The notes beneath the pieces are model-generated. The model did not search any database. It was not told where the DNA came from and worked only from the letters and a program-made list of their open reading frames with translations. From Candidatus Kapaibacterium sp. (GTDB taxonomy: Bacteria > Bacteroidota > Ignavibacteria > Kapaibacteriales > JAEUSM01), in the NCBI GenBank assembly GCA_016788785.1, contig JAEUSM010000014.1, positions 1 to 64,000 on the forward strand: a DNA stretch of 64,000 bases, read 5' to 3'. Below, in pieces: positions 34,029 through 41,001 of this stretch. Each line of letters begins with the position of its first letter. Positions within the stretch are counted from its first letter, which is position 1. A program made the position numbers and the translations under genes.

Positions 34029-34297
34029 TATTTATTCGTTGGTAAGGAGAATTTGTGAGCTAAGTGGTCAAATACTGAATCGAAAATTGCCAATATTTCG
34101 TTTCTACGAGCTAATTTTGGGTCTGTTTCTTCAACGGTTGTAGCGGTTGAGGTAGGAATTGTACCCTTTTCACGCATCAAACGAAAGGTCATTGGGTCGC
34201 CAACTGCTGAGGGAACTCCTGCTATTTTGTCTGCTAAAATCTCCTTGGTTAACTCCAAAGAAATTTTGAATAATTCTATTTTATGGTTTTCATTCAT
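34028..34297 (-). CDS. Small hypothetical protein
   Basis: An 89-residue protein with two predicted helices (IELFKISLELTKEILADKI; RRNEILAIFDSVFDHLAHKF) and a polar Thr-rich middle. It shows no motif, signal peptide or recognised family. It is directly coupled to the hydrolase gene by a stop-start overlap, so the two may act together or simply share a message. Its start is not separated from the upstream divergent htrA region by any clear promoter. Confidence 0.6.
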   Translation of the reverse strand: MNENHKIELFKISLELTKEILADKIAGVPSAVGDPMTFRLMREKGTIPTSTATTVEETDPKLARRNEILAIFDSVFDHLAHKFSLPTNK

Positions 34298-34433
34298 TCC
34301 GATTTTACCAAAGACAATAGGAAAAACAACCTTTCGTTTACAAGCAAATCTAACGAATTGTGAGGTTCTTTATTTCAATTGTTTTTACATCATTGACTCT
34401 GGTTTTTTGAATTACTTTAAAGGGATTATTTCT

Positions 34434-35624
34434 GTGAAAAAATTGAAGATTATTGCAAGTATTGTTTGTGCATTTATAATTGTTACGGGTTGTGATGCAA
34501 AGTCGAGCAATGAGAATGCTCAAGAGCTATTAGCATCAAATAAAATTTACAAAGAAGCTGCTAATGATGAAATAAGTAATTCACGACAAAATGCCATTAC
34601 TCGTACTGTCAAGCGTTGCTCTCCAGCGGTGGTAGGTATAAACGTAACGGAAATTCGTGAGGTGCAATATCGTGACCCGTGGGATGATTTTTTTGGAATG
34701 GATGATCCGTTTTTTCGTCATTTTGGGCGTCCACAAAGCAGAACCTACTCTCGTAAATACCCTGTGAAAAGTTTGGGTTCGGGATTTATCATCTCGGCTG
34801 ATGGATATATCATCACCAATGATCACGTTGCTGGGAAGGCATCAAAAATAGTAGTAACGCTCACTGGTGGAAAAAAATATGATGCTGAATTGATTGGATC
34901 TGACCCACGAACGGATGTTGCACTTCTAAAAATTGATGGCTCAAATCTACCATTTTTGGAATTAGGTAATTCTGATGACGTAATTCCCGGTGAATGGGCT
35001 ATTGCGATGGGAAATCCTTTTGGACTCTTTGATGTGAATTCCAAACCTACCGTTACGTGCGGAATTGTATCGAACACTGGAGTAAGTTTTGTAGAGAACA
35101 ACCGAGTGTTTCGCGATATGATTCAAACAGATGCTGCAATTTCTTCCGGTAATTCGGGAGGTCCATTGCTCAATTCATTGGGGCAAGTGATTGGAATCAA
35201 TACGATTATTTTTTCCACAGCTCAAACGCAACAAGGTTCTGGCTCCATAGGAATTGGATTTTCCGTACCCATCAACCGCGTAAAAAAAGTGGTGGATATG
35301 CTCAAAAAAGGGAAAATCGACCGTAACTATTACACTGGGTTGAAAGTACAAGAAATTGATGACCAGATTGCAAAAGCATTAGGACTGAGCAATAAAGAAG
35401 GTGTGGTAGTGGTTGAAATCGTTCGTAATTCTCCAGCTCACAAAGCAGGAATCGAACCGGGTGACATCATCAAAGAAATTAATGGACTACCCATTATGCG
35501 TGAAGACGACGCCTCTATTGCGGTCTATGACGCCATCAATGGACAAAGCCTCGAAGTAGTCATCATCCGAAATGACAAAGAAATCAAACGCACCATGACC
35601 TTAGAATCTCCTCCATCTCGCTAA
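34434..35624 (+). CDS. htrA: HtrA/DegP-type serine protease, lipid-anchored
   Basis: A 396-residue envelope protease and quality-control factor. GTG 34434 is chosen (AGGG 9 bases upstream) because it begins a lipoprotein signal (IIVTGC, C20). The trypsin-like domain has His131 in ITNDHVAGKA, Asp161 in RTDVALLKI and Ser241 in SSGNSGGPLLN. One PDZ domain follows (HKAGIEPGDIIKEINGLP, residues of about 300-385). A DPWDDFFGMDDPFFRHF linker precedes the protease as in other FCB-group HtrA proteins. It is monocistronic, ended by a shared terminator. Confidence 0.94.
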   Translation: MKKLKIIASIVCAFIIVTGCDAKSSNENAQELLASNKIYKEAANDEISNSRQNAITRTVKRCSPAVVGINVTEIREVQYRDPWDDFFGMDDPFFRHFGRPQSRTYSRKYPVKSLGSGFIISADGYIITNDHVAGKASKIVVTLTGGKKYDAELIGSDPRTDVALLKIDGSNLPFLELGNSDDVIPGEWAIAMGNPFGLFDVNSKPTVTCGIVSNTGVSFVENNRVFRDMIQTDAAISSGNSGGPLLNSLGQVIGINTIIFSTAQTQQGSGSIGIGFSVPINRVKKVVDMLKKGKIDRNYYTGLKVQEIDDQIAKALGLSNKEGVVVVEIVRNSPAHKAGIEPGDIIKEINGLPIMREDDASIAVYDAINGQSLEVVIIRNDKEIKRTMTLESPPSR

Positions 35625-35653
35625 CAAAAAAGCCACAAATTGTGGCTTTTTTT
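35625..35653. terminator. Bidirectional terminator between htrA and the metzincin gene
   Basis: AGCCAC-AAATT-GTGGCT with an A run before and a T run after; it serves both converging genes. Confidence 0.9.
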
Positions 35654-35673: not shown

Positions 35674-37032
35674 TTACCGTGAAATGACAATGGAAAAATC
35701 TTGAATATTTTTCGATATTGTTACTCGGATAACATAATTTCCATTTGCAAGATGCCCAACAGGAATTCCAATTTTGCTATCAAAAGATTCTAACGATCCA
35801 TTGAAATACTGCCTTCCAACATAATCATAAATTTCCACCGAATAATTTCCTTCTACAGTAGTTGGCACAAACACCCATTGGTCTGCTGGAATGGGGTAAG
35901 AAAGTGCTTGAAGTTTGTTTATGTGTTCTATGGTTGAAGCTAAGTCACATGCAGAACCATTCATAAACATTTGATTAGCGGATGTATCAGGTATAGGGCA
36001 ACAATTTGCACGTTTATATGCACATCTGTCTTGCCATGTTAATCCTTGTTTGTAGGAATGCGGTTGGTCAAAAAACATTATTGATTCTACGGATTCCCCT
36101 TCAACTTTAGTGTTGCAAATTGTATCAAAACTATGTTTAAATCCAAGAATATGCCCAACTTCGTGTAACAATACATCTTCCAGACTATAAAATTTGAATT
36201 TAGAATCATAGTTAATATCAAAGATAGCGTCAGTTCCCGTTGGAATACTGTCAGTAAAAAAGAACTTAGAAGGAATTTTATATTGAACATCAGGAACATC
36301 AACTGGGGCAAAGAACTGACGCGTAGCATTTATAATAATTTCTCTTCCACATAGTACTTGTATAGAGTCACAATCGTCATGATCATTGTAATCAGGAAAT
36401 GCTTTTGCTAAGACGTTTTCAATTCTTTCTCCTGGTTCAAGTACAAAATCTCGAACATCTGTTGACCAATAAATTTTAATACAACAAAAATCATCACCTC
36501 GAACAGTTGAATCGCTTATAGGACAATTTGACTTCCATTCTTTAAATACTCTATCTATAAGTGAATTCGAATTGTTTGTATCATAAATTGAACTAAGCTT
36601 AAAAATAGGGTATGTCCGAACTGTTGCATTGCCATTTATAATAGTGTCTCTTGAACCTGAAAAATTATTCATTTCTTCAATATCACCAAAACCTTCTACT
36701 GTCAATCTAATCCCTGGTTGTAATGGAAAGCCTAAATCTGAATAATTAAAACAAAGATTATGATTATACTTCCAGAAATTGATATTTTTAGAAATCAACT
36801 GATTGGATAGAGGAATGGTTACACACCTAGAAATTTCATAATTAACACTATCATCAGGAGAAAAAAAAGTTTTGCCATCAAAACAATGATTTTGTGGAAA
36901 GGAATGTGGTAAACAATAACATTCATCACAAGTCGGATTTTTAGGATCATTAGGTTTAGTTTTTACTTGGGCAAAAATATAATTAATTGAAACTAAAATC
37001 AAAATGAAAGTTATATTTAAAACTCTTTTCAT
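35674..37032 (-). CDS. Secreted metzincin metalloprotease with T9SS tail
   Basis: A 452-residue exported zinc protease. A signal peptide (cleavage near INYIFAQ) precedes a Cys-rich N-terminal region (CDECYC). The zinc site HEVGHILGFKH is at 290-300, with all three His and the catalytic Glu291 present, followed by a likely Met-turn in ESIMFFD. The C-terminal 80 residues form a T9SS sorting domain (YPIPADQWVFVP, VEIYDYVGRQYFNG, ANGNYVIRV). It is the last gene of the minus-strand cassette; the previous stop and this ATG are separated by a single base. The substrate is unknown; it may process neighbours or host/prey proteins. Confidence 0.85.
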   Translation of the reverse strand: MKRVLNITFILILVSINYIFAQVKTKPNDPKNPTCDECYCLPHSFPQNHCFDGKTFFSPDDSVNYEISRCVTIPLSNQLISKNINFWKYNHNLCFNYSDLGFPLQPGIRLTVEGFGDIEEMNNFSGSRDTIINGNATVRTYPIFKLSSIYDTNNSNSLIDRVFKEWKSNCPISDSTVRGDDFCCIKIYWSTDVRDFVLEPGERIENVLAKAFPDYNDHDDCDSIQVLCGREIIINATRQFFAPVDVPDVQYKIPSKFFFTDSIPTGTDAIFDINYDSKFKFYSLEDVLLHEVGHILGFKHSFDTICNTKVEGESVESIMFFDQPHSYKQGLTWQDRCAYKRANCCPIPDTSANQMFMNGSACDLASTIEHINKLQALSYPIPADQWVFVPTTVEGNYSVEIYDYVGRQYFNGSLESFDSKIGIPVGHLANGNYVIRVTISKNIQDFSIVISR

Positions 37033-37033
37033 A

Positions 37034-38071
37034 TCAATACCCTTTAGTTAAAATGATATCAACAGTCTCATTAAATTTCACTTCCCAAGTACTGTATGGA
37101 ATCCACTTGTTTTCTGACCATACTTTATTCACATCTGAAACCATACCATTTACAATTGGAAGCACACCATTTGAACAGTAATGTTCTGGACTTAATTGTA
37201 TATAATCATGAGTTCTTGAATATGATACATTTCCTCTTCCTAAAAATACTATCAAATCCTGCCCTGGTTGAAATCTCATAATTCTACGAGTTTTATCATA
37301 AATTAAAGGGTCTACAAGTGGATATGGAGTTGAAAAGTGTGAGTGTGGGCGTGGCTGAGGGTATGACCTTAATGAGATATAAAATTCAAAAAAACAGTAG
37401 TTGCTTAAATTTTCGTTAACATCCGTTGTTTTTTTTGTATTGTTTTGATTTAAACAAAACATTGGAATAGTTTTTCCTTTCAATGTATCTGTAACCAAAC
37501 AAGTTATTTTGAAATGATTGTATTGAGTTGAATCACCTTGAGTATAAATTGAAGATTTCATGGAATCTATTGACATTACAGATACTCGTAATACAAACAT
37601 CGGTCGTAATGCTGAATAAATATGATATTTATTTGCTAATGGAAGTTTGTAACTTTTATCAATTATATCATGAGTTTTGAAAGTAAAATAGGTTCTATAC
37701 TTTTTACTTTGAATGTACTGTTCTTCAAGATATTGATAAAAACGAAAAGGGTCATAATCGATAGCTTTATAAGAATATTGCCACAAAGTATGTAGGGTGT
37801 CATTAGTGAGATTTACATTTTTAATCCAATCATCAACCCAAAATGGATCTGTATTTGTTCTGCAAAAGCTATCTAATGCAAGATATGCTAATTGAACATC
37901 AAAAGGCATAGCAGAGTGTATAGGAGGGATATTCTGTAGAATGGGTAATTTTGTATGAAATACATTAATCCCTGGCTCTACCGGAAATGTACTGTCTGGT
38001 CTTACCCGTATCTGAGAATGTATAAATCCGTAAGTGAGAATAAATAATAGTATCACCAGAATTCTGTTCAT
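37034..38071 (-). CDS. Secreted protein of unknown function, metzincin cassette
   Basis: A 345-residue protein with a signal peptide (MNRILVILLFILTYGFIHSQ). The mature part is rich in Tyr and Phe. It contains the motif KTHDIIDKSYKLPLANKYH, then FKITCLVTDTLKGKTIPMFC and a QPGQDLIVFLGRGN segment that resembles beta-sandwich secreted domains. No family was recognised and no T9SS tail is visible. The gene is one base from the metzincin gene and 36 bases from the upstream gene, so translational coupling is likely. It may be a partner, inhibitor or substrate of the protease. Confidence 0.65.
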   Translation of the reverse strand: MNRILVILLFILTYGFIHSQIRVRPDSTFPVEPGINVFHTKLPILQNIPPIHSAMPFDVQLAYLALDSFCRTNTDPFWVDDWIKNVNLTNDTLHTLWQYSYKAIDYDPFRFYQYLEEQYIQSKKYRTYFTFKTHDIIDKSYKLPLANKYHIYSALRPMFVLRVSVMSIDSMKSSIYTQGDSTQYNHFKITCLVTDTLKGKTIPMFCLNQNNTKKTTDVNENLSNYCFFEFYISLRSYPQPRPHSHFSTPYPLVDPLIYDKTRRIMRFQPGQDLIVFLGRGNVSYSRTHDYIQLSPEHYCSNGVLPIVNGMVSDVNKVWSENKWIPYSTWEVKFNETVDIILTKGY

Positions 38072-38107
38072 GATTTCTTCTTTTTATTAATTGTTATCAA
38101 TCTGTTT

Positions 38108-39226
38108 TTATAAAATCATATCACTGACTAATCTACTCCAATTATAGCCATAAGGTCCGTTTTCCCAACGTACTATTGAATAACCATTCGGACAATCTTT
38201 ATCCCAAGGAGGATTTCGTGCAATTCCATAGTTACTACTGTAAAAAATTCTATCTTCATCATTAGAATTAAATTCTTTTATTTCAATTGGTGGATCTTGT
38301 TCATAAATAGTTGCTTGTTTATTAGAAATTGGATTTTGTAGATGCATCGTTTCAAATTTAAAAGTAACTATTGGAATTCTTTGCAACTTTATAAAGACTG
38401 CTGATGGACATTTTTGCAATAGATTCAAGTATTCTAAAAGATATTTAAACATTTCTCCTCGTTCTGACATTACATTAGAAGCTGGGTCCATAACATTACC
38501 GTGTAATTTTAAACGATTATAAAGAACTTCCATTTCTTCCAATATTACTTCATCGGTCTCGCCTTTTTGATTACGCAAATTTGGATCACTTTCACCAGTA
38601 AATGCTCTTTCTATAGAATTTTTAAATGCTTCTCTTAGTAATCCATATAAAGCAATGAAAAGTCTTCTCTCTTCATCTGTTAAGTCTGGGTAAAGATTAT
38701 TACCTACAACAGCATCTTTAATCTTGTTAAATAATTTTCTAACAACATCACAAGTTGCACAAATTCTTCTATCGACTGATTCACTAAAATCGAGTGGATC
38801 AGTTGAAACCGGAGGAGTATCAAATGGAGTGCTTGTTCCACCTCCTCTACCTGTATCACCTCCACCCCCATCTAGTTTTCTACATTTTAACTTGTAGTGA
38901 TAGATAGTCCTATCTGGATTATCCTGTAATGGAGTATCTTGGACTACCTCAGTTGTAGTATGGGAAAATTCTAACCAACAATCATATCCATCAGGTGTTT
39001 GAAAAACTGGTTGAGGTGGGTTTGAATCCTCAAAGGTTTTATCAAATGTGTTGGTTCCGCCATCTTCACAACCACAACCAACCTTTTGGCTTTGTGCGAT
39101 GAGGGAATGAGAACCTGAATTGCATCCACAATCGCCGCCTGATTGTAGGATGTTTGCAGTAGGGGATTGGGTTCGCTGAGAGCGTTGTGTTTGTTGACTT
39201 TGCGCGATAAATGACATTGAACTCAT
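38108..39226 (-). CDS. Unrecognised Cys/Gly-rich protein, metzincin cassette
   Basis: A 372-residue protein without a signal peptide. The N-terminus has repeated SFIAQSQ/SLIAQSQ segments (about residues 5-11 and 41-47) and two CGC clusters (GDCGCN, GCGCED). A Gly-rich linker (GGGGDTGRGGG) is followed by a helical region with CATCDV, and a polar C-terminus. No family was recognised. AAGGTG precedes the ATG and overlaps the upstream stop. The paired CGC motifs could bind metal or form disulphides; a peptide-like leader role is speculative. Confidence 0.55.
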   Translation of the reverse strand: MSSMSFIAQSQQTQRSQRTQSPTANILQSGGDCGCNSGSHSLIAQSQKVGCGCEDGGTNTFDKTFEDSNPPQPVFQTPDGYDCWLEFSHTTTEVVQDTPLQDNPDRTIYHYKLKCRKLDGGGGDTGRGGGTSTPFDTPPVSTDPLDFSESVDRRICATCDVVRKLFNKIKDAVVGNNLYPDLTDEERRLFIALYGLLREAFKNSIERAFTGESDPNLRNQKGETDEVILEEMEVLYNRLKLHGNVMDPASNVMSERGEMFKYLLEYLNLLQKCPSAVFIKLQRIPIVTFKFETMHLQNPISNKQATIYEQDPPIEIKEFNSNDEDRIFYSSNYGIARNPPWDKDCPNGYSIVRWENGPYGYNWSRLVSDMIL

Positions 39227-39235
39227 AGTATCACC

Positions 39236-39841
39236 TTAGGGTTGAATCAAAAAACAACGTAGCTCGAAGATACTCGATACATTAGTGGTGCTTTCTAATC
39301 TAATTCCCAAATTTACTTGACCAGTATATCCAGAAAAGAGAAATTCGAATGTACCGACACCAGTAAATGGACCTGTTCCGAAATTAAACACCTGAATCTC
39401 ACCATGTTCATTTCCATTAGTAACAGAATTTTCCATGACGGAAATTTGAATGGAATTATAATTCAATCCACCCAAATTCAATGAAAGTTTCGATAAGAAT
39501 CTTGGTGATGTTGGATTATTATACAAAAATACTAATCCTTTCAACTGAGAGGGAACATCGGAAGAGAGATTTGCCATTTTCGTTTGACTATTCATAGCTT
39601 GGGAATAAATTAACTCTTGTCCATTATGCATTCCGTTCACAGCCACAACCGTTGGCTCATCGTTGAATGTAATAGGAGAGGCACCCCATGTACCACCGGT
39701 TGGAGTATTGTAATTGTTTGACCATAGTACATCAGCATTTACTGGAGCACCAAATGTTGCTTTGACCGTACTAATATACGTCGTAATAAGTGATGGATTC
39801 ATGTTTTCTAATGCATTCCATCCGCCTGGGAAATTTTTCAT
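39236..39841 (-). CDS. Beta-rich unrecognised protein, first gene of metzincin cassette
   Basis: A 201-residue protein without a signal peptide. Strand-rich segments (SKLSLNLGGLNYNSIQISVME, cut short here, and VGTFEFLFSGYTG) suggest a jelly-roll or lectin-like fold. The N-terminus KNFPGGWNALENMNPSLITTY is unusual and offers no motif. ATG 39841 is preferred to the TTG at 39847 because AAGGA lies 7 bases before it. It is the promoter-proximal gene of the four-gene cassette; the -7 element at 39967-39974 gives a leader of about 120 bases. Function unknown. Confidence 0.6.
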   Translation of the reverse strand: MKNFPGGWNALENMNPSLITTYISTVKATFGAPVNADVLWSNNYNTPTGGTWGASPITFNDEPTVVAVNGMHNGQELIYSQAMNSQTKMANLSSDVPSQLKGLVFLYNNPTSPRFLSKLSLNLGGLNYNSIQISVMENSVTNGNEHGEIQVFNFGTGPFTGVGTFEFLFSGYTGQVNLGIRLESTTNVSSIFELRCFLIQP

Positions 39842-39966: not shown

Positions 39967-39974
39967 CAAAGATA
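39967..39974 (-). promoter_or_regulatory. -7 element TATCTTTG for the metzincin cassette
   Basis: Exact TAnnTTTG on the minus strand, about 125 bases before the first cassette ATG. No clear -33 element was found. Confidence 0.4.
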
Positions 39975-40113: not shown

Positions 40114-41001
40114 TTATTCTTCCATAATGGATACACTTGAGAGGTCTGCTTTTCCATTTTTCAAAAATTCGTAGGTTATTTTATCAACTTGACAATCGAC
40201 AATGGTGATTCCTTTTAGTTTTTTACCTTTGAAAAAAGTAAAAAGGATTGTTGCGTTTTTGAATGTTACCTTAGAAAAAGAACATTGATCAAATGAGCAT
40301 TCTTCTATCAATCCGGTAAAGGTAATATTTTTAAATGCTGACTGTGAAAAAGAAGTCAATTTCCATTTTGTATCAATGACTTCACAATGAGAAAAGTTAC
40401 TCATTGCAATTGTAGCTCCAGTAAAATTTGCATTGGAGAAATTGCAATATTCGATATTTGATTTCGAAAAGTCACTCTCTTCAACATCACAGCCTTTGAA
40501 GTTGTTGTGCAATACGTTCGAAGCAAATATAGTGCATTTCTTCATAGTAGAATTAGTAAAATCACACAATTCTATATTGTTACTATTGAATGAGATTCCA
40601 ATAAGTTCTGCAGCAATAAATTTACAATTTTTTACATTGGAAGAACCAAATTGTTCTTGTAAATTCTTAAGACCAGAAAAATCTGCATCTACCCAATTTC
40701 CTTGCGACATATCCCATTTCAATGAGGTCTTATTTTTTGGTCGTGTTACTGTTTCAGTTTCAGTATTAGCAGATTCAGAGATCTCAGTCGCTTCGATTTG
40801 ACCTGTGAAATACTGCAAATCGACTCCTAATATCTCTGTTAGTCGAAAAAAGGTCGCAAGATCTGGACTTGATTCGCCACGTTCCCATTTCCCAACGGCT
40901 TGAGGACTTATGGAGATACGTTGAGCTAAATCGGCTTGAGAAAATTTTTTGTTTTTTCTGGCTTCAGCTATTTTGAAGCCAATGGAAGTTGCATTTTGCA
41001 T
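40114..41001 (-). CDS. XRE helix-turn-helix regulator fused to pentapeptide repeats
   Basis: A 295-residue fusion. Residues of about 8-66 form a Cro/C1-type DNA-binding domain (KIAEARKNKKFSQADLAQR, SPQAVGKWERGESSPDLAT). A Thr/Glu linker follows, then pentapeptide-type repeats from about 125 to the end (CDFTNSTMKKC, SNFSHCEVID, CSFDQCSFSKV) that should form a right-handed beta-helix. Pentapeptide repeats can mimic DNA or act as a scaffold; their combination with an HTH suggests a ligand- or protein-responsive repressor. The target genes are unknown. It is monocistronic with its own -7 element. Confidence 0.85.
   Translation of the reverse strand: MQNATSIGFKIAEARKNKKFSQADLAQRISISPQAVGKWERGESSPDLATFFRLTEILGVDLQYFTGQIEATEISESANTETETVTRPKNKTSLKWDMSQGNWVDADFSGLKNLQEQFGSSNVKNCKFIAAELIGISFNSNNIELCDFTNSTMKKCTIFASNVLHNNFKGCDVEESDFSKSNIEYCNFSNANFTGATIAMSNFSHCEVIDTKWKLTSFSQSAFKNITFTGLIEECSFDQCSFSKVTFKNATILFTFFKGKKLKGITIVDCQVDKITYEFLKNGKADLSSVSIMEE

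What the first reader, a model, noticed from the sequence alone, without database searches (positions are those of the whole stretch)
35674..39841. Four-gene cassette with T9SS metzincin and unrecognised partners
Seen: four minus-strand genes are packed within 1 to 36 bases of each other with translational coupling. They encode two proteins without signal peptides (one beta-rich, one with CGC clusters), a secreted unknown, and a T9SS-exported HExxHxxGxxH protease. The first three match nothing I recognise. Together they could be a secreted protease with its activator, inhibitor and target, or a new surface-processing system. This is the best candidate for an undescribed system here.
Basis: partly seen in the sequence, partly recalled or inferred. 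Interest (0 to 1): 0.62.

Follow-up and report, generated by a model that had tools for sequence, protein, structure and literature searches.

The report
Bacterial metalloprotease with TIMP-like partner
An uncultured Kapabacteria bacterium carries a secreted protease resembling our matrix metalloproteases next to a co-inherited protein whose predicted fold resembles their natural inhibitors (TIMPs), and here this pair is joined to a second, unrelated gene pair of unknown function.

Summary
The four genes are real: minus strand, spacers of 9, 36 and 1 nt. They are two modules. (A) P3+P4. P4 is a matrixin-like M10 metzincin with a T9SS sorting tail. P3's family has no Pfam or NCBIfam name; its AlphaFold model has a helical domain then an OB/NTR domain, and nearly all of the 50 best PDB matches are NTR/TIMP domains. 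In 123 genomes of the order, 38 of 39 metzincins of this subfamily sit beside P3; the exception is at a contig end whose overlap points to a P3 neighbour. P3 also occurs without a detected metzincin (27 of 65 places), never clearly the reverse. The two diverge in parallel (r=0.84). Best reading: a secreted protease with its dedicated inhibitor or guard, like KLIKK proteases with potempins and Listeria Mtz-Tim. Inhibition is not shown. (B) P1+P2. P1 is a beta-sandwich family (19 of 123 genomes), normally followed by a variable gene without signal peptide, then a secreted gene. P2 is a singleton. The modules are joined here and in one other genome (G081). Protease-plus-inhibitor is partly supported; one four-part system is not.

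The parts
39236..39841 (-). P1: 201-aa beta-sandwich protein, no signal peptide; first gene of the unit; member of a family in 19 of 123 genomes of the order
   Evidence: ORF; AF2 model pLDDT 91.3; family distribution; no Pfam/NCBIfam/PHROGs match
38108..39226 (-). P2: 372-aa protein, no signal peptide, Ser/Gln-rich N-terminus with two CGC motifs; sits in the slot that other P1 loci give to variable proteins without signal peptide; no homologue found
37034..38071 (-). P3: 345-aa secreted protein; helical domain plus C-terminal NTR/TIMP-like OB domain; constant neighbour of the metzincin subfamily
   Evidence: AF2 pLDDT 81.9, pTM 0.82; PDB fold matches; co-occurrence
37046..37603 (-). P3 residues 157-342: NTR/TIMP-like OB domain with C-terminal helix
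   Evidence: agrin NtA Z 7.3, 2.8 A over 116 residues; TIMP-1 Z 6.5; TIMP-2 Z 6.2; TIMP-3 Z 5.8
37604..37903 (-). P3 residues 57-156: helical domain holding most of the near-invariant residues of the family (Y63, D67, D91, D105, P108)
35674..37032 (-). P4: 452-aa secreted metzincin, M10 matrixin-like, with T9SS C-terminal sorting domain
   Evidence: PF00413 E 3.5e-8 over cut-off; TIGR04183 over cut-off
36133..36165 (-). P4 zinc motif HEVGHILGFKH (residues 290-300); Met-turn M319
   Evidence: sequence; conserved columns
35683..35898 (-). P4 residues 379-450: T9SS type A sorting domain
   Evidence: TIGR04183 24.2 bits vs cut-off 23
35626..35652 (.). Terminator-like hairpin between P4 and the convergent DegP-like gene
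39967..39974 (-). TATCTTTG, matching the Bacteroidota -7 element TAnnTTTG, 126 nt upstream of the P1 ATG; a consensus match only

Best explanation
P3 and P4 are a secreted protease with its dedicated partner, most likely an inhibitor or guard. P4, a matrixin-like metzincin, crosses the inner membrane by Sec and the outer membrane by the T9SS. P3, made just before it from the same message, is exported by Sec and would use its NTR/TIMP-like domain, helped by the conserved helical domain, to bind the catalytic cleft and keep the protease off the cell's own envelope until release. Shown: the genes, motifs and sorting domain, constant adjacency, parallel divergence, the predicted fold. Inferred: one message, physical binding, inhibition, where they meet, and the substrate. 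P1+P2 are a separate module whose function is not settled.
For: P4 matches M10 matrixins above cut-off and carries a T9SS tail; sprA present. 38 of 39 strong metzincin matches in the order lie beside P3 on the same strand; the 39th is cut by a contig end, and that end overlaps the end of a P3-bearing contig of the same genome at 62 of 63 bases. An independent search with Pfam M10 gives 23 of 28 short-frame matches near P3 against 0 of 45 long-frame ones. 26 pairs: distance matrices correlate, r=0.84, 0 of 2000 permutations as high; re-pairing within genomes lowers it to a mean of 0.78. P3 occurs without detected metzincin at 27 of 65 places but no metzincin of the subfamily is known without P3, the asymmetry expected of an antidote or a dedicated chaperone. 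P3's C-terminal domain matches NTR/TIMP structures as a group, whereas P1's model gives a mixed list. Precedents: each KLIKK protease preceded by a gene for its specific inhibitor (PMC7296668) and a Listeria metzincin/TIMP-like pair (PMC8235301).
Against: Fold scores are moderate (best Z 7.3, Foldseek E 0.024), and Z below 8 can reflect a common arrangement; no sequence match to TIMPs. P3's NTR domain is C-terminal, so the free N-terminal Cys by which TIMPs chelate zinc is absent; agrin NtA shares the fold without being an MMP inhibitor (own knowledge). The most conserved residues are in the linker and helical domain, not the NTR domain. Some P3-paired metzincins have degenerate zinc motifs (YELGQ in L099, YELGR in L203, none found in L202), where an inhibitor would be pointless. 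Some P3 proteins carry their own T9SS tail. P4 may have its own N-terminal latency segment. The metzincin profile was built from P3-adjacent members, so 38 of 39 is partly by construction, and only 15 candidates per genome were scored.
Confidence: 0.5

Rival explanations
1. P3 is a dedicated folding or export chaperone (steric foldase) for the metzincin, needed for activity rather than for inhibition.
For: Also explains why the metzincin is never seen without P3, the parallel divergence, the conserved helical domain and retention beside degenerate proteases.
Against: P3 without metzincin is common (27 of 65 places) and some P3 proteins have a T9SS tail of their own, odd for a periplasmic foldase; the NTR/TIMP-like fold points to protease binding.
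Confidence: 0.2
2. P3 is the protease's target: P4 cleaves and releases or activates P3, whose fragment is the effector, as proposed for Listeria Mtz-Tim.
For: In Listeria the TIMP-like lipoprotein is cleaved and released by the metzincin and both are needed for the phenotype (PMC8235301). Solo P3 genes and T9SS-tailed P3 suggest a role of its own.
Against: No lipobox in the window P3, no identified cleavage site, and protease-dead pairs persist.
Confidence: 0.15
3. P3 and the metzincin (active or dead) form a structural or adhesive surface complex; proteolysis is secondary.
For: Degenerate zinc motifs in L099, L203 and L202, with two P3 genes flanking the dead protein in L099 and L203.
Against: Most paired metzincins keep the full zinc motif.
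Confidence: 0.1
4. All four proteins make one system, with P1 and P2 acting on P3/P4.
For: Tight spacing here and terminator-like flanks; G081 (L165) also has P1, a Cys-rich gene, a T9SS gene and P3 in a row, with a metzincin start after it.
Against: P1 occurs in 19 and P3 in 36 of 123 genomes; in nearly all other P1 loci there is no P3 or metzincin.
Confidence: 0.08

Closest known systems
KLIKK proteases and potempins of Tannerella forsythia (karilysin/PotA and others)
   Same: T9SS-type secreted protease, one class of which is a matrixin; a gene for a secreted partner lies immediately upstream and the pairs vary together (PMC4404884, PMC7296668). From own knowledge, some potempins including PotA have an OB fold.
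   Different: Potempins are small lipoproteins with reported specific inhibition; P3 is 345 aa with an extra helical domain and no lipobox; P4 lacks a KLIKK ending (ends VISR). Potempin structures did not appear among the matches shown.
Listeria Mtz-Tim metzincin/TIMP-like pair (PMC8235301)
   Same: Adjacent metzincin and TIMP-like-fold genes, consistently paired across many genomes.
   Different: Tim is a lipoprotein encoded after Mtz in Gram-positives and is cleaved by Mtz; P3 is encoded before P4 here, is not a lipoprotein, and P4 is a T9SS cargo.
Animal MMPs and TIMPs
   Same: Matrixin-like catalytic motif; NTR/OB fold in the partner.
   Different: No detectable sequence similarity of P3 to TIMPs, no N-terminal zinc-chelating Cys, NTR domain at the C-terminus behind a helical domain.
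Pseudomonas alkaline protease AprA and periplasmic inhibitor AprI (own knowledge; mentioned in PMC8235301)
   Same: Secreted metzincin with a dedicated inhibitor gene.
   Different: AprA is a type I secretion cargo and AprI is not TIMP-like.

Membership tests
M10 matrixins (metzincins) | HExxHxxGxxH zinc motif and Met-turn | tested here: met
   HEVGHILGFKH 290-300 and M319, conserved in the alignment
M10 matrixins (metzincins) | Match to Peptidase_M10 profile above cut-off | tested here: met
   33.9 vs 24 bits, E 3.5e-8
M10 matrixins (metzincins) | Cysteine-switch (or equivalent) propeptide | tested here: inconclusive
   Cys-rich N-terminal region, no PRCGxPD motif seen; zymogen mechanism unknown
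T9SS cargo proteins | Signal peptide plus conserved C-terminal sorting domain | tested here: met
   Hydropathy 2.62; TIGR04183 24.2 vs cut-off 23, though PF18962 22.8 vs 27
T9SS cargo proteins | T9SS in the genome | tested here: met
   SprA_N E 9.7e-38 in the own genome
TIMP family | NTR/OB fold | tested here: inconclusive
   Predicted model; nearly all of the top 50 matches are NTR/TIMP, best Z 7.3, below the tool's confident range
TIMP family | Sequence similarity to TIMP/NTR profiles | tested here: not met
   No TIMP or NTR match in Pfam for 23 members or in PDB sequences
TIMP family | Mature N-terminal Cys that chelates the catalytic zinc | tested here: not met
   Window P3 continues after the signal peptide as QIRVRPD, without Cys; the NTR domain is C-terminal
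Potempins | Gene immediately upstream of a T9SS protease | tested here: met
   1-nt spacer; P3 first in 19 of the 26 pairs
Potempins | Small lipoprotein | tested here: not met
   345 aa, no lipobox Cys
Potempins | Specific inhibition of the neighbouring protease | not testable with these tools
   Needs biochemistry
Listeria Mtz-Tim | Homology of P3 to Tim | not tested
Contractile injection system cargo (considered for P1/P2) | Contractile (phage-type) sheath in the genome | tested here: not met
   PF04984 absent from G000 and from the other P1-bearing genomes among 61; classical T6SS sheath was not searched

The most novel reading that the evidence does not exclude
P1 marks a new kind of cassette in Kapabacteria: a small beta-sandwich protein encoded just before a variable cargo that lacks a signal peptide yet looks like an extracellular protein (Cys-rich CCxxHD proteins, galactose/glyoxal-oxidase-like proteins, a lipase-like protein, P2), followed by a secreted surface or lipoprotein gene. 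P1 would carry the cargo out by a Sec-independent route, and in this window the metzincin/TIMP-like pair has been recruited as the secreted component.
Probability: 0.15. Interest if true: 0.75.

Novelty: new variant of a known kind. Interest (0 to 1): 0.5.

Why it matters
Bacterial metzincins paired with TIMP-like proteins are barely described (Listeria Mtz-Tim; potempins in one oral genus). Here the pairing recurs through a whole order of mostly uncultured Bacteroidota relatives, with a larger two-domain partner, tandem copies and pairs in which the protease is dead. It gives a natural series for testing whether OB/NTR folds were taken up more than once as metalloprotease regulators, and how T9SS bacteria avoid digesting their own envelope. 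The P1 family is a separate lead, since several of its Sec-less partners look extracellular.

Tried and rejected
Contractile injection as the route for P1/P2: the phage-type sheath family is absent from P1-bearing genomes, so this was dropped; classical T6SS was not tested. Homology of window P2 to other P1 partners: none (best E 0.34). P1 fold: high-confidence model but only generic Ig/transglutaminase/RhoGDI-type matches, top Z 6.0, and no clear viral match, so no function was drawn from it. Finding named relatives by pattern scans: the P3 alignment had no usable conserved stretch and window P3 found none; another P3 hit Candidatus Kapabacteria KatS3mg039. Plasmid carriage of P3: no match. 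Wide spread of P3: nearly confined to the order, with one strong and two weak matches in other orders of the class among 395 genomes of the phylum. Potempin structures did not appear among the fold matches shown, which does not exclude similarity. Phospholipase A2 membership of the Cys-rich P1 partners was considered only by motif (CCxxHD); Pfam gives no support.

Full report
OBSERVATION. The four minus-strand genes are as described: P1 (39236-39841), P2 (38108-39226), P3 (37034-38071) and P4 (35674-37032), with spacers of 9, 36 and 1 nt. P1 and P2 have no signal-peptide-like N-terminus; P3 and P4 do. A terminator-like hairpin closes the unit downstream; a similar hairpin stands upstream by eye. 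P4 passes the Pfam M10 and NCBIfam T9SS sorting-domain cut-offs, and the T9SS gene sprA is in the genome. The genome belongs to the same order as Candidatus Kapabacteria KatS3mg039: genome G040, from which locus L095 was taken, matches that record at 100%. The window's own species could not be named.

THE P3-P4 MODULE. A profile of P3 finds matches in 36 of 123 genomes of the order (65 places after fragments were set aside) and very little outside it. A profile of the metzincin gives 39 strong matches; 38 have P3 beside them on the same strand. The exception (L180) is cut by a contig end. A P3-bearing contig of the same genome (L165) runs into a metzincin-like start after P3, and its last 63 bases match the end of L180 at 62 positions; the reading frame between the two is broken, so this copy may be a pseudogene or an assembly error. 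The metzincin profile was built from P3-adjacent members, so I checked with Pfam M10 alone: of the matches found in the order, 23 of 28 in short frames lie near P3 and 0 of 45 in long frames do. Both gene orders occur, P3 first in 19 of 26 complete pairs and P4 first in 7, with three tandem units in G003. Distances among the 26 P3 sequences and among their 26 metzincins correlate at r=0.84 (0 of 2000 permutations as high); shuffling partners only within genomes lowers r to a mean of 0.78, with about 3% of shuffles as high as observed, on few genomes. Part of the correlation is shared species history.

WHAT P3 IS. No family database names P3. The AlphaFold2 model from a 23-sequence alignment has mean pLDDT 81.9 and pTM 0.82: signal peptide, extended Pro-rich linker, helical domain (57-156), then a beta-barrel with C-terminal helix (157-342). 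In PDB searches the first eight Foldseek hits are NTR-type domains (complement C3/C4/C5, agrin NtA, PCOLCE NTR), and nearly all of the 50 best VIA-align rows are NTR/TIMP domains, led by agrin NtA (Z 7.3, 2.8 A over 116 residues) with TIMP-1, -2 and -3 at about 6. Scores are moderate; the consistency of the list is the stronger argument, and the P1 model searched the same way gave a mixed list. P3 lacks the sequence signature and the N-terminal zinc-chelating Cys of TIMPs, so it is not filed as a TIMP. Conservation is highest in the linker and helical domain (P49, M55, P56, Y63, D67, D91, P108) plus G199 in the NTR domain, so the helical domain may be as important for partner binding as the NTR domain.

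HOW IT PROBABLY WORKS. The asymmetry (P3 often without detected metzincin, metzincin not without P3), the parallel divergence and the fold fit a dedicated inhibitor or guard. Two bacterial precedents exist: KLIKK proteases each preceded by a gene for their specific inhibitor (PMC4404884; PMC7296668) and the Listeria metzincin/TIMP-like pair (PMC8235301), where the TIMP-like protein is cleaved and released rather than shown to inhibit. Points that resist a simple inhibitor story: P3-paired metzincins with degenerate zinc motifs (L099, L203, L202), P3 proteins with their own T9SS tail, and the absence of the TIMP zinc-chelating N-terminus. Chaperone, target and structural-complex models therefore stay open. 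Binding, inhibition and substrate are all untested.

THE P1-P2 MODULE. P1 relatives occur in 19 of 123 genomes. Downstream of P1 there is usually a gene without signal peptide and then one with a signal peptide. The middle gene varies: a Cys-rich group with CCxxHD motifs, galactose/glyoxal-oxidase-like proteins, a lipase-like protein. Window P2 occupies that slot but is similar to none of them. P1 models with high confidence as a beta-sandwich without an informative match. In several genomes P1 is longer and the middle gene is missing. Function unknown; a carrier or adaptor for Sec-less cargo is a guess. In the window the P3-P4 pair takes the place of the secreted gene after P1-P2; G081 shows P1, Cys-rich, T9SS and P3 genes in a row, so the joining is not unique, but most P1 loci and most P3 loci are separate.

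VERDICT. Real, and more than a chance cluster, but two modules rather than one system. The P3-P4 half is a new variant of bacterial metzincin/inhibitor-like pairs; the P1-P2 half is an unexplained cassette, seen so far in this order (only the order was searched for P1).

Noticed in passing
L074-L078, L088, L169, L170 (genes after P1): Cys-rich proteins (20-38 Cys) without signal peptide share CCxxHD and CLCGG motifs, the first reminiscent of the phospholipase A2 active site; no Pfam support.
   Followed up: partly
L073, L176, L177 (genes after P1): Galactose/glyoxal-oxidase-like proteins (GO-like E-set, Kelch) lacking signal peptides lie after P1.
   Followed up: partly
L093 (G010, about 6.9-16.5 kb): Three tandem units of P1, a P2-position gene and a T9SS-tailed secreted gene; the first P1 is broken.
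   Followed up: partly
L091 (G003, 6.7-14 kb): Three tandem metzincin-P3 units in reversed gene order.
   Followed up: partly
L099 (G033), L203 (G082): Metzincin-like proteins with degenerate zinc motifs (YELGQ, YELGR), each flanked by two P3 genes, one of which carries a T9SS-type tail.
   Followed up: partly
L084 (own genome, contig C2, about 2.2 kb): A degenerate P1 copy upstream of a 568-aa T9SS-tailed protein.
   Followed up: no
L082 and L083 (own genome, contigs C6 and C5): Two more P3 paralogues without a neighbouring metzincin, close to genes that look like OmpA-type proteins.
   Followed up: no
window 40114-41001: Upstream gene encodes an XRE-type helix-turn-helix regulator fused to what looks like pentapeptide repeats; the Listeria metzincin/TIMP-like pair is also next to XRE regulators, perhaps by coincidence.
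   Followed up: no
window 34227-35624: Convergent downstream gene looks like a DegP/HtrA-type serine protease with a PDZ domain, judged by eye.
   Followed up: no
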